Position numbers and translations under genes: made by a program. The notes beneath the pieces were generated by a model. It made no database searches. It worked only from the letters and a program-made list of their open reading frames with translations, and was not told the origin of the DNA. 40,147 bases of DNA from contig CAKSZE010000011.1 of assembly GCA_934525325.1 (NCBI GenBank), forward strand, positions 1 to 40,147. Reading direction: 5' to 3'. The number at the start of each line of letters is the position of its first letter. Position 1 is the stretch's first letter. This document shows positions 18,022-28,911 of the stretch, in pieces. Source of the DNA: an uncultured Faecalibacterium sp. GTDB lineage: Bacteria > Bacillota > Clostridia > Oscillospirales > Ruminococcaceae.

Positions 18022-18325
18022 ATGCCCCCGTCCTTACAAGCCTTAGGCTCTGCAAGGACGGAGGCATGAACATACTTCCGTGGTACCACCTTGGTTCACT
18101 GCATCCTTACGGATACAGCCTCGATGCTGCGGCAGCGTATGCTGCTTACAGCCGGACGCTGTAACGGGCGCATCCCGTTGCGGGCTTAGCACTCCTGCGC
18201 CTCGTCCGCACGGCTCCGAGACCATTTTCAGCTTCCTGTTTCCTGCCCTTTTTCACCGCCCGGGCTCTCTGGTAAGGATCAATGCGAAGGCCTACTCTTC
18301 TCTTCACAGCCATTTTTGTGATATT
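18022..18325 (-). promoter_or_regulatory. T-box leader, methionine specific, of metQ-metN-metI-metY-metA
   Basis: The minus strand carries the T-box core AAGGTGGTACCACG (18079-18092), which pairs with the tRNA acceptor end in the antiterminator. It is followed by a strong terminator (arms between 18022 and 18067, then a T-run). Upstream is a long structured Stem I region. The specifier is read as ATG at 18223-18225, in the context GAAAATGG-TCTCGGAGC, which matches the usual specifier-purine-helix pattern; it corresponds to methionine, as the gene content demands. Uncharged tRNA-Met should stabilise the antiterminator and switch the operon on. The T-box call is near certain, the exact specifier placement likely. 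Confidence 0.93.
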
Positions 18326-18360: not shown

Positions 18361-18422
18361 CACCCCTAACGAAGTTTTTGGGTAGGGAAATGGCTTCCGG
18401 TCTTTTGTTGCACCCGTTTTGC

Positions 18423-18451
18423 TTGACAATGCGCAAAAAAAAGGCTATACT
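18423..18451 (+). promoter_or_regulatory. Strong plus-strand promoter facing the small-peptide gene
   Basis: TTGACA (18423-18428), exactly 17 bases, TATACT (18446-18451). No start codon with a ribosome site follows before the terminator at 18518-18549, so the transcript is probably non-coding. Confidence 0.8.
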
Positions 18452-18457
18452 ATAACT

Positions 18458-18549
18458 ACAAAAGGCACTGCGACAAGCGGTTAGCCCTTTAGGTTTTTGG
18501 CTTAACTTTTATCAAAGAAAAACCGTCACCTGCCGGGGTGGCGGTTTTT
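18458..18549 (+). ncRNA. Candidate small antisense RNA, convergent to the 20-residue peptide gene
   Basis: A transcript from the 18423 promoter to the shared terminator would be about 90 nt. It has an internal stem (GTTAGCC with GGCTTAAC, one bulge) and a terminal hairpin. It contains no ORF with a credible start. Its 3' end is complementary to the 3' end of the peptide mRNA, including the last codon. Read-through to the second plus-strand terminator (18722-18746) would make it antisense to the whole mRNA. Existence is predicted from signals only. Confidence 0.5.
18518..18549. terminator. Bidirectional terminator shared by the small peptide mRNA and the convergent RNA
   Basis: A 13-bp stem, AAAAACCGTCACC with GGTGGCGGTTTTT (one G-T pair), and a 6-nt loop; it has A/T runs on both sides. 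The peptide stop codon (18548-18550) is inside the stem. Confidence 0.85.
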
Positions 18550-18610
18550 ACTTTCTTACCTTGATCGTAAACGTAAATCCAAACAAGTGGAATGTCAAAG
18601 TAATAGGCAT
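18548..18610 (-). CDS. Tiny hydrophobic/basic peptide (20 residues), family not recognised
   Basis: The reading frame gives MPITLTFHLF followed by GFTFTIKVRK. Hydrophobic and polar residues alternate (I, L, F, L / F, F, I, V) on both sides of a central Gly, more like an amphipathic beta-hairpin than a helix, and the tail is basic. Although very short, it has every expression signal: a sigma-A promoter (18692-18720), an excellent Shine-Dalgarno (AAGGAGGTGAG, ending 3-4 nt before the ATG), and a terminator at its stop codon. The Shine-Dalgarno is paired in a hairpin. It stands alone, so it is not a leader peptide for a downstream gene. A type I toxin or a membrane-active peptide is the leading guess; function is unknown. 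Confidence 0.65.
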   Translation of the reverse strand: MPITLTFHLFGFTFTIKVRK

Positions 18611-18613
18611 TTT

Positions 18614-18635
18614 CTCACCTCCTTCCGGAAGTGAG
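18614..18635 (-). promoter_or_regulatory. Hairpin sequestering the Shine-Dalgarno of the small peptide
   Basis: In the mRNA, CTCACTTCC (18635-18627) pairs with GGAGGTGAG (18622-18614) around a GGAA tetraloop: nine pairs, one of them G-T. It buries the Shine-Dalgarno, so translation should be low unless the stem opens. Confidence 0.65.
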
Positions 18636-18670
18636 GACCAACCGCCTGCCGTATGTGCAGTACCTTTCGG

Positions 18671-18686
18671 TCGCTTTTCAGCGACA
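18671..18686 (-). other. 5'-terminal hairpin of the small-peptide mRNA
   Basis: GTCGCT-GAAA-AGCGAC is a perfect 6-bp stem with a GNRA loop, starting at about the predicted transcript start. Such 5' stems commonly stabilise mRNAs. Confidence 0.6.
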
Positions 18687-18691
18687 GGACG

Positions 18692-18720
18692 ATTATAACA
18701 TATTCCGGCCCTTTTCGCAA
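18692..18720 (-). promoter_or_regulatory. Promoter of the small-peptide gene
   Basis: Minus-strand TTGCGA (18715-18720), 17 bases, consensus TATAAT (18692-18697). Confidence 0.75.
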
Positions 18721-18721
18721 G

Positions 18722-18746
18722 AAAGCTCTGGTGTTTCCAGAGCTTT
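18722..18746 (+). terminator. Plus-strand terminator between the small-peptide locus and the exporter genes
   Basis: AAAGCTCTGG (18722-18731) pairs with CCAGAGCTTT (18737-18746), followed by TTATTATAT. No plus-strand gene lies upstream, so it only makes sense as the end of a transcript from the 18423 promoter. Confidence 0.75.
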
Positions 18747-18759
18747 TTATTATATGCTC

Positions 18760-18819: not shown

Positions 18820-19611
18820 ATGAACAGCAGAGACCCTTTTCCCGATGAAGAGCTGCGCCGCCGCATTATGGATTTTATCATGGCCGCAGGGCAGACCCTG
18901 CTGGAAAACGGCGCGGAGGTGTTCCGGGTGGAGCAGACCATGGAGATCATGGCACGCAGCTTCCATCTGCGGGAATTTCACGTTTATGTGCTGACCAACG
19001 GCATTTTTGCCAGCGCCGGCACTGCCGAGATCAGCGAGGTGCGTAACGTGCCGGTGCGCACCACCCATCTGGGGCGGGTGGCGGCGGTGAATGAGCTTTC
19101 CCGCCAGATCGCCCAGACCGGTATGCCCCTGGACGAAGCCGAGAGCCGTCTGGTGCTGGCGCGCCGGCTGCCCTTCCCGAAAGACCATGTGCAGCTGCTG
19201 TCCGGGCTGTGCGGGGCGTTCTGCTTTGCCATGATGTTCGGCGGCAGCCTGCGCAGTGCGCTGGCAGCTGCCGGGGCAGGGCTGGCGGCCAGCTGGTACC
19301 TGCTGTGGTGCGGACGGCACGAAGTGCCCGGCGGCTTCCAGAAGATCAGCACCGCCGCGCTGATCACGCTGGTGTGCATCCTGCTGTGCGGTGCGCTGCA
19401 CACCTCTGCCAGTCACGCCATCATCGGCGCGTTGATGATCCTGACCCCGGGCATCGCCTTCACCATGGGTATCCGGGACTTTGTGCAGGGCGACTACCTT
19501 TCCGGCACCATCCGCATGATCGACGCTTTGCTCATTGCTGCCAGCATTGCCATAGGCACCGGTCTTGTGCTGCGGCTGTACACGGTACTTACGGGGGTGG
19601 TCGTGGTATGA
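18820..19611 (+). CDS. Threonine/serine exporter family protein, large subunit (YjjP/ThrE N-terminal domain)
   Basis: A 263-residue protein of the ThrE/YjjP family (PF06738 type). The soluble start (residues 1-120: MDFIMAAGQTLLENGAEVFR, VEQTM, VRTTHLGRVAAVNELSRQI) is highly characteristic. It is followed by about five transmembrane helices. The family exports small amino acids or dicarboxylates (threonine and serine in Corynebacterium ThrE, succinate in E. coli YjjPB). Here ThrE is split into two genes with this as the N-terminal half. The ATG at 18820 follows AAGGAGA; the open frame extends upstream to 18631, but that part has no ribosome site and overlaps the small-peptide locus. The substrate is uncertain. 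Confidence 0.88.
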   Translation: MNSRDPFPDEELRRRIMDFIMAAGQTLLENGAEVFRVEQTMEIMARSFHLREFHVYVLTNGIFASAGTAEISEVRNVPVRTTHLGRVAAVNELSRQIAQTGMPLDEAESRLVLARRLPFPKDHVQLLSGLCGAFCFAMMFGGSLRSALAAAGAGLAASWYLLWCGRHEVPGGFQKISTAALITLVCILLCGALHTSASHAIIGALMILTPGIAFTMGIRDFVQGDYLSGTIRMIDALLIAASIAIGTGLVLRLYTVLTGVVVV

Positions 19612-28599: not shown

Positions 28600-28911
28600 A
28601 AAAAGGCTCCCGTCTTTCAAGGCGAAAACCTTGAGAGACGAGAGCCTGTAAATTGCTTTTACAGGGCACCCGTGGTACCACTCTCCTTGCTGTACGGTCA
28701 GGTACAGCCACTTTGCACGATCGGCCAAAACGGCGAATCGCTGCCCCTGTAACGGTGGGCGTCCGTCAGAACCTACTTGTCCGTTCAGCTCTGCCGCTCG
28801 GGGGCCAGTATCCGAAGTTCTCTGCACCCGCCTTGCACCACCCGGCGGCTCTCTGCACACAGAAGAAAGATCGTTTTATCCCCGTCAACGCATTTGCGCT
28901 TTGTTGAAAGT
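28600..28911 (-). promoter_or_regulatory. T-box leader, leucine specific, of leuA-leuC-leuD-leuB
   Basis: The minus strand has the T-box core GTGGTACCAC (28672-28681) and a strong terminator (arms 28604-28622 and 28629-28647, then TTTTTG). It has a long Stem I region beginning CAGAGAGCCGCC. The specifier reads CTG (28806-28808) in the context GGATA-CTG-G-CCCCCGAGC, which fits the usual specifier-purine-CCCCxGAGC layout and encodes leucine. Uncharged tRNA-Leu should promote antitermination and turn on the operon. The class is near certain; the specifier placement is likely. Confidence 0.93.

What the first reader, a model, noticed from the sequence alone, without database searches (positions are those of the whole stretch)
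18423..18747. Convergent small-peptide/antisense-RNA locus resembling an undescribed type I toxin-antitoxin module
Within 325 bp there are two strong facing promoters and a 20-residue peptide gene on the minus strand. The peptide mRNA has a 5'-terminal hairpin and a Shine-Dalgarno locked in a 9-bp stem. The plus-strand RNA has no ORF, and a bidirectional terminator contains the peptide stop codon. A second plus-strand terminator at 18722-18746 has no other gene to serve, so longer antisense transcripts covering the whole mRNA are likely. These traits together are those of type I toxin-antitoxin pairs with 3' overlap (TxpA/RatA, BsrG/SR4 in Bacillus). The peptide, alternating hydrophobic and polar with a basic tail, does not resemble the helical toxins I know.
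Basis: partly seen in the sequence, partly recalled or inferred. Interest (0 to 1): 0.78.

Follow-up and report, generated by a model that had tools for sequence, protein, structure and literature searches.

The report
Bacterial peptide toxin with antisense antidote
A 330-base stretch of a gut bacterium's genome carries a tiny gene for a 20-amino-acid peptide and, facing it, a small RNA that most likely keeps the peptide from being made; the same pair recurs in many gut bacteria and some of their viruses, and it looks like a new kind of toxin-antidote module.

Summary
The locus is one copy of a large family of convergent peptide/antisense-RNA modules that I found in no family library and no paper searched. 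Over 151 peptide-bearing loci (140 distinct), a facing promoter of at least 10/12 occurs in 143 of 149 testable loci (42 of 2980 shuffles). The peptide frame is under purifying selection, the SD hairpin is kept, and the antisense RNA covaries as two hairpins. Three results favour a type I toxin-antitoxin module. (i) Decay is one-sided: 17 of 70 antisense copies lack the peptide; 1 of 36 peptides lacks the antisense RNA. (ii) The same RNA chassis also carries hydrophobic single-helix peptides of type I toxin make-up. (iii) Some copies lie among phage structural genes, and the window's site is empty in relatives. New are a predicted beta-hairpin peptide and "mirrored" RNA 5' ends: antisense and mRNA 5' arms resemble each other more within a locus than against the nearest other locus (83 vs 19). 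The plan is that of Fst/par, with different toxin and recognition sequences. Toxicity and transcription are untested.

The parts
18418..18747 (.). whole module as a presence/absence unit between a metQ-like gene's T-box leader and a ThrE-like gene
   Evidence: Alignment of the site in 9 relatives: occupied in the window, G007, G001 and G030; antisense half only in G024; absent in G004 (95% identity in the neighbouring gene), G011 and G031; G029 and G027 not alignable there
18423..18451 (+). promoter of the antisense RNA (TTGACA-17-TATACT)
   Evidence: equivalent promoter >=10/12 in 143 of 149 testable loci against 42 of 2980 shuffles
18458..18551 (+). antisense RNA (putative antitoxin), ends inferred from the -10 box and the terminator
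   Evidence: covariance model R1
18464..18486 (+). 5' hairpin of the antisense RNA (arms a/a': GGCACTGC..GCGGTTAGCC)
   Evidence: 4 of 9 pairs with double changes over 57 sequences; a:a' locus-specific, z -9.2
18518..18549 (.). shared terminator; G.U pair on the antisense strand, C.A mismatch on the mRNA strand
   Evidence: + strand only; U.G kept in 56 of 57 sequences and 6 of 13 stem pairs with double changes
18548..18610 (-). 20-aa peptide gene MPITLTFHLFGFTFTIKVRK (putative toxin, predicted beta-hairpin)
   Evidence: pN/pS 0.12 and 0.32 in its two subfamilies; beta-hairpin model of a relative
18614..18635 (-). hairpin sequestering the Shine-Dalgarno sequence (9 bp)
   Evidence: SD pairing 0.87 against 0.61 with the 5' part shuffled, own above control in 117 of 121
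18636..18664 (-). mRNA 5' arm b (18664-18657) and GCGGTT box b' (18645-18636), mirroring the antisense 5' hairpin
   Evidence: inverted repeat I1; mirror test
18670..18685 (-). 5'-terminal hairpin of the peptide mRNA
   Evidence: in long-leader loci a >=6-bp hairpin at the inferred start in 35 of 60 against 6 expected
18692..18720 (-). promoter of the peptide mRNA (TTGCGA-17-TATAAT)
   Evidence: >=10/12 in 94 of 149 loci against 23 of 2980 shuffles
18722..18746 (+). second terminator-like hairpin, inside the presence/absence unit but not conserved family-wide
   Evidence: not listed by the scan

Best explanation
The locus is a chromosomal copy of a phage- and chromosome-borne type I toxin-antitoxin-like module. 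The minus-strand mRNA encodes a basic, amphipathic peptide, probably a two-stranded beta-hairpin, that would harm the cell if made (inferred). Its SD is locked in a hairpin (sequence and conservation). The facing, on average stronger, promoter makes a ~94-nt RNA that shares the terminator with the mRNA and is fully complementary to the mRNA's 3' end (shown by sequence). I propose two contacts. The complementary terminator hairpins nucleate. The 5' ends, which carry homologous hairpins, then exchange arms: mRNA arm b pairs with antisense arm a', and antisense arm a with mRNA box b'. This would trap the leader and lead to a stable or RNase III-cleaved complex. When the module or its transcription is lost, the less stable antisense RNA disappears and the peptide is translated. 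Pairing capacity and coevolution are shown; transcription, duplex formation, repression, stability and toxicity are inferred.
For: Facing promoter >=10/12 in 143 of 149 loci, 12/12 in 97; the mRNA promoter reaches 12/12 in 8. Coding constraint: pN/pS 0.115 over 93 nucleotide variants of MRIT-type and 0.322 over 24 of MPIT-type. SD hairpin kept in 117 of 121. Antisense RNA: 91.4% cells paired, 78 double-change cells against 26 in shuffles, 0 of 500. Of 74 antisense places at E<=1.1e-8 in 394 genomes (inspected): 43 with an amphipathic peptide (39 beta-type, 4 divergent ones of G151), 10 with a helical peptide, 17 without peptide, 2 cut by contig ends, 1 degenerate, 1 not inspected. None of 16 orphans checked has an mRNA promoter >=10/12; 13 of 16 keep the antisense promoter at >=10/12. 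Of 37 peptide places, 35 have the antisense RNA, 1 lacks it, 1 is cut by a contig end. In the nearest genus 3 of 17 strong antisense places lack the peptide and 13 of 13 profile-found peptides have the RNA. Mirror test 83 vs 19, 25 ties, controls not significant; b:a' duplex z -5.9. Copies among phage structural genes. Beta-hairpin model, pLDDT 86-87 over residues 1-20; strand moment above helix moment in 92 of 92 distinct peptides.
Against: No transcript, translation or toxicity data. The peptide is not a membrane helix (best 17-residue hydropathy 1.18; 0.65-1.73 over 92 relatives), unlike most type I toxins. One intact peptide with a 10/12 mRNA promoter has no antisense RNA (L066 = L110), though that genome has other copies of the RNA. 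Of the four designed pairings, a:b' (z -0.6) and b:b' (z +1.1) are not locus-specific, nor is b:c (z -1.4), so arm exchange is only half supported; gene conversion between the inverted ends could also mirror them, and loci are not independent. Model E-values are rough, and only the best 11 candidates per genome were scored.
Confidence: 0.8

Rival explanations
1. A non-toxic small regulatory or membrane-acting peptide (stress or phage-related) that happens to be under antisense control; the pair is a regulator, not an addiction module.
For: The peptide is not a typical membrane helix and toxicity is untested; one expressed-looking peptide lacks the antisense RNA (L066).
Against: One-sided loss of the peptide with the antisense RNA kept, other copies with single-helix hydrophobic peptides of type I toxin make-up in the same chassis, multicopy and phage distribution.
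Confidence: 0.14
2. The functional product is the antisense RNA (a dual or trans-acting small RNA); the peptide gene is a decoy or accessory, and antisense-only copies are the working form.
For: 17 antisense-only places, 13 of 16 checked with a good promoter; antisense hairpins conserved.
Against: Strong purifying selection on the peptide; most copies keep a peptide (53 of 70). Antisense-only copies are cut at different points, some leaving the last peptide codons (L211, L216, L221), as in decay of a pair.
Confidence: 0.05
3. A miniature mobile element whose mirrored ends are terminal inverted repeats, with promoters and peptide as cargo.
For: Mirrored ends, several sites per genome, empty sites.
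Against: Both promoters lie outside the mirrored arms and are conserved with them; the presence/absence unit ends in T-runs at ~18418 and ~18747, not at the arms; I saw no target-site duplication there and tested for none at other sites.
Confidence: 0.03
4. Chance juxtaposition of promoters, a short frame and a terminator.
For: Each part is short; the terminator scan of the region exceeds no shuffle expectation.
Against: Conservation of the parts over many loci.
Confidence: 0.001

Closest known systems
Fst/RNA II (par of plasmid pAD1) family of type I TA systems
   Same: Convergent promoters, shared terminator, small basic-tailed peptide, SD in an intramolecular stem-loop, helix at the mRNA 5' end, short antisense RNA with potential contacts at both ends, spread on mobile elements and chromosomes (anatomy from passages of PMC7472228).
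   Different: No Fst-like peptide (no membrane helix; no PXXXG motif in the peptide), no direct repeats DRa/DRb at the initiation site; instead mirrored 5' hairpins, and a SD-sequestering hairpin not covered by the antisense RNA.
TxpA/RatA and BsrG/SR4 of Bacillus; Pfam Hol_Tox (PF16935)
   Same: 3' overlap of convergent transcripts (for the Bacillus pairs from PMC12390103, and recall). A nearest-genus relative of the chassis (L258) encodes MVTYSDLIQTGILVVGIIGLFIQILKK, which aligns along its length to Hol_Tox, below cut-off (15.9 bits against 23.3).
   Different: The window peptide matches no such family; the overlap is the terminator only, shorter than in the Bacillus pairs as I recall them.
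Type I TA modules of Clostridioides difficile (such as RCd8-RCd13 pairs)
   Same: Clostridia, convergent, many in prophages, several copies per genome, mostly cognate-specific (passages of PMC6563280; abstract start of PMC7699646).
   Different: C. difficile toxins of 34-59 aa have a membrane helix and charged tail. I did not compare sequences with them; only the family libraries and Rfam were searched.
YrzI small proteins of Bacillus
   Same: Only library match of the window peptide, E 0.15 (Pfam) and 0.098 (NCBIfam), far below cut-off.
   Different: Not significant; about twice as long. Variants of the peptide had other sub-threshold matches (MpPF26 E 0.022; phrog_4193 E 0.013).

Membership tests
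Type I toxin-antitoxin system (general) | small toxin peptide, usually under 60 aa | tested here: met
   20 aa here, 19-40 aa over 92 distinct relatives; size only
Type I toxin-antitoxin system (general) | antisense RNA from its own promoter, complementary to the toxin mRNA | tested here: met
   sequence and conservation of promoter and RNA; transcription not shown
Type I toxin-antitoxin system (general) | peptide is toxic when overproduced | not testable with these tools
   needs an experiment
Type I toxin-antitoxin system (general) | antisense RNA represses the toxin | not testable with these tools
   needs an experiment; only retention asymmetry seen
Type I toxin-antitoxin system (general) | hydrophobic transmembrane alpha-helix (usual, not universal: SymE and RalR are cytosolic) | tested here: not met
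   hydropathy 1.18, strand moment 2.06 against helix moment 0.58; beta-hairpin model of a 34-aa relative
Fst/par | convergent promoters and shared bidirectional terminator | tested here: met
   on the mRNA strand the terminator has a mismatch and is not listed by the scan
Fst/par | SD sequestered in an intramolecular stem-loop | tested here: met
Fst/par | helix sequestering the mRNA 5' end | tested here: met
   window 18670-18685; 35 of 60 long leaders; short leaders not scored
Fst/par | direct repeats DRa/DRb giving complementarity at the initiation site | tested here: not met
   no direct repeat linking the two 5' regions; an inverted repeat instead
Fst/par | Fst-type peptide | tested here: not met
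   no Pfam, NCBIfam or PHROG family at cut-off; no membrane helix
TxpA/BsrG/Hol_Tox | Hol_Tox-type peptide | tested here: not met
   only another chassis relative matches weakly
Any Rfam RNA family (release 15) | match at gathering score | tested here: not met
   none at this locus nor in 12 related loci; permissive search gave only sub-threshold hits there such as SIB_RNA at E 0.14

The most novel reading that the evidence does not exclude
A Clostridia-wide family of RNA antitoxins forms one chassis (mirrored 5' hairpins, locked SD, polarised shared terminator) into which unrelated toxins have been exchanged: membrane helices, very short hydrophobic peptides, and a beta-hairpin peptide, a toxin type that I know from no type I system. 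The coevolving mirrored arms are the code that keeps sibling modules in one cell from cross-neutralising.
Probability: 0.5. Interest if true: 0.85.

Novelty: new variant of a known kind. Interest (0 to 1): 0.75.

Why it matters
If confirmed, it adds a large and apparently undescribed toxin-antitoxin family to gut Clostridia and their phages, a group in which a review reports few homologues of known type I toxins outside C. difficile (PMC6563280), and a beta-hairpin peptide among toxins described mainly as membrane helices. Many paralogues in one genome sharing an RNA chassis make cognate specificity directly testable: swap the mirrored arms and see which toxin is neutralised. The products are mostly shorter than gene callers usually report, so the module is probably invisible in most annotations (inference; no feature was annotated under the best Vescimonas matches).

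Tried and rejected
Rejected: a Bacillus YrzI relationship (sub-threshold; the two papers consulted only list yrzI in tables of untranslated regions and Hfq-bound RNAs). SIB/ohsC/Phe-leader Rfam hits: sub-threshold, taken as chance. Leader-peptide attenuation: the frame ends at a terminator and no gene follows on that strand before it. mRNA stem b:c as the reason for conserving arm b: not locus-specific. Second terminator as sign of a longer antisense RNA: not conserved. RNAalifold did not find the antisense 5' hairpin by itself; it was supported only when the structure was named. Class-wide peptide search found 2 of 391 genomes, so the peptide looks nearly order-bound in that sample, although the named scan also returned records titled Lachnospiraceae, Blautia and Roseburia.

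Literature: ten searches listed no paper that describes this family, as far as titles, abstracts and the passages read show. Three searched peptide strings gave 0 papers; 'type I toxin-antitoxin' + 'Lachnospiraceae' + 'antisense RNA' gave 0. Searches (3,208 papers; 1,430) were too broad, with 10 listed each. The library lacks most subscription papers. Seen: section 1 part 1 of PMC12390103; passages of PMC7472228, PMC8309996, PMC10903887, PMC3871023 and PMC3574147; outline and passages of PMC6563280. Others: listing and abstract start only. Against novelty of the fold: a table legend in PMC8309996 says that beta-sheet is marked in the toxins it lists; I could not see which.

Dropped rows: 2 of 151 loci without 120 nt upstream and 2 without 170 nt downstream; 11 of 151 without a usable antisense promoter or terminator pattern; L076, lacking the GCGG box, loci with short leaders and repeated rows, leaving 127; repeated or SD-less leaders, leaving 121; only loci with an mRNA promoter >=10/12 and enough flank (86). 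The 151 loci hold 140 distinct module sequences, some from the same genome in two collections (e.g. L066/L110). Some truncated loci were printed with wrong offsets: L257 and L259 (not used) and L317 and L318 (re-read).

Full report
Setting. The window's own genome is not held; the nearest held genome, G001, shares 36% of its words. I take the genus to be Faecalibacterium from general knowledge; no call names it. The locus lies between a metQ-like gene with a T-box leader (sub-gathering T-box match at 18051-18316) and a ThrE-like gene starting near 18821 (names recalled; sequence).

Anatomy. The + promoter scores 11/12, the - promoter 10/12. The peptide is MPITLTFHLFGFTFTIKVRK. The SD lies in a 9-bp stem, the mRNA begins with a hairpin, and the stop codon touches the shared terminator. 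Both RNAs fold better than shuffles (z -3.3 each). The terminator scan lists the main terminator on the + strand only and finds fewer sites in the region than shuffles (2 against 4.6), so the case for the terminator rests on the family, not on the scan.

Family. A DNA search found the ~230-bp element in 11 of 31 genomes of the nearest genus, in five of them at two sites. The 15 full-length copies aligned first (window included) all keep the frame. Peptide profiles found relatives in 20 of 394 genomes of the order. The scan of named genomes confirmed 300 of 372 pattern stretches, 80 kept, among them Oscillibacter, Flavonifractor plautii, Agathobaculum, Pseudoflavonifractor and Lachnospiraceae. 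Viral contigs gave 2, 19 and 7 loci in three scans (the 2 recur among the 7). I printed the neighbouring proteins of three viral contigs: L160 and L151 carry capsid- and tail-type genes around the peptide, L171 a terminase-like gene (names by inspection, no library search). A Vescimonas 861-kb plasmid record matched at one place in one search and at three in another, with no feature annotated under the best match of either.

Conservation. In 151 loci (140 distinct) the antisense promoter reaches >=10/12 in 143 of 149 testable (97 with 12/12) against 42 of 2980 shuffles; the mRNA promoter does so in 94 of 149 (8 with 12/12) against 23 of 2980. The antitoxin-side promoter is thus the stronger one by this measure. 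Coding selection: pN/pS 0.115 (93 variants) and 0.322 (24 variants), with variability concentrated in third positions. SD pairing probability 0.87 against 0.61 with the leader shuffled (own higher in 117 of 121). The 83-123-nt antisense RNA has two hairpins and a variable AU-rich spacer. Over 57 sequences 91.4% of pair cells are standard (shuffles 86.2%), 78 cells show double changes (shuffles 26.2, none of 500 as high), and slid structures fall to 29-49%. One terminator pair is U.G on the antisense strand in 56 of 57, hence a C.A mismatch on the mRNA strand. In the long peptides this A is part of the stop codon, but the 20-aa forms keep it too. The terminator may therefore be polarised so that the mRNA arm AACCGCC stays available, for instance to the leader's GGCGGTT (inverted repeat I2); this is inference.

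Mirrored 5' ends. The antisense RNA and the mRNA begin with the same kind of motif (GGCACTGC..GCGGTTAGCC). Over 127 distinct loci the antisense 5' arm resembles its own locus's mRNA arm more than that of the most similar other locus (below 97% identity) in 83 cases and less in 19, with 25 ties (sign test p 1e-10; loci are related, so this is not a strict probability); with three neighbours 106 against 19. Without the 97% limit: 62 against 18, 47 ties. The 3' arms give 50/22 and 77/30. Controls: promoter region 36/33, SD region 33/20 (p 0.1). Duplex energies are locus-specific for a:a' (z -9.2) and b:a' (z -5.9), but not for a:b' (-0.6), b:b' (+1.1) or b:c (-1.4). The simplest functional reading is that mRNA arm b is kept able to pair with antisense arm a'. 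Gene conversion between the inverted ends is not excluded.

Asymmetric decay. The covariance model R1 matches 143 of 394 genomes at E<=0.01, with only the best 11 candidates per genome scored. Of its 74 places at E<=1.1e-8 I inspected 73: 43 with an amphipathic basic peptide, 10 helical peptide, 17 no complete peptide, 2 contig-end, 1 degenerate. Of the 43, 39 are beta-type; the 4 of G151 are divergent, and two of these have the higher moment as a helix (L214, L220). The orphans keep the antisense promoter (13 of 16 checked at >=10/12; L208 has lost it) and have no mRNA promoter of that score (0 of 16). Several retain just the last peptide codons. Conversely, of 36 complete peptide places 1 lacks the antisense RNA. 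In the 149 testable loci, 6 rows (5 loci) lack an antisense promoter of 10/12: L081, L103, L124 and L145, whose best mRNA-promoter scores are 5-8, and L066 = L110, with 10. In the nearest genus, 3 of 17 strong antisense places are orphans, one of them at the window's own site in G024, cut between A-runs. The window's site is empty in G004, G011 and G031.

Other toxins in the same chassis. Twelve inspected relatives (ten of the 74, plus L244 and L245 at 2.3e-8) combine the antisense hairpin and terminator with a peptide rich in a single hydrophobic stretch, e.g. MSMFFDTYESIFVFISAICDLIGLIVLIINVINTRKK and MGIKLFRVLICAILLLHILTINAK (17-residue hydropathy 2.18-2.89 over the twelve; 0.65-1.73 over 92 distinct peptides of the present family). 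Eleven of the twelve have an antisense promoter of >=11/12, the twelfth starts at a contig end; 7 of 12 have an mRNA promoter of >=10/12. In the nearest genus one weak relative (L258) aligns end to end with Pfam Hol_Tox below its cut-off. Outside the order, R1 found 20 of 290 further genomes at E<=1e-5. Of seven such places read, six (L313-L318) show a short hydrophobic frame ending at the terminator and one (L312) an antisense RNA whose peptide is reduced to its last codons; antisense promoters score 9-12. None of the 16 peptides scanned from chassis relatives matches a Pfam or NCBIfam family at cut-off.

Peptide. The strand moment exceeds the helix moment in 92 of 92 distinct peptides (window peptide 2.06 against 0.58). 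AlphaFold2 on a 34-aa relative with 23 rows gives a beta-hairpin (strands 3-9 and 12-18; pLDDT 86-87 in the first 20 residues, 61 after; pTM 0.31).

Comparison. The review passages on Fst/par (PMC7472228) describe convergent promoters, a shared terminator as first contact, a second complementary region, a SD stem-loop and a 5' helix. The present module works on the same plan as far as sequence tells, but fails two membership features, peptide type and direct repeats. It therefore works like Fst/par and is not a member of it. It matches no Rfam family.

Verdict. A new variant of a known kind, type I toxin-antitoxin, with a probable new toxin type and a probable new recognition design. Function is inferred from conservation, decay pattern and shared chassis; no experiment was possible.

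Noticed in passing
window 18051-18316 (-) and 28631-28897 (-): Two T-box leaders; the first, before the metQ-like gene, scores 82.7 bits (gathering 93), the second 102 bits.
   Followed up: no
Probably further type I modules of the same bacteria.
   Followed up: partly
   Followed up: partly
L222 (G310 C63 20400-21900) and L217 (G310 C12 7400-8600): Three and two copies in clusters with ~340-390-bp spacing, one of each cluster reduced to the antisense RNA; L053/L064 are another tandem pair about 294 bp apart.
   Followed up: partly
L237:1-801: A helical-type copy whose leader and antisense 5' end share a different motif (ATATCGG), a natural test case for the mirrored-arm idea.
   Followed up: no
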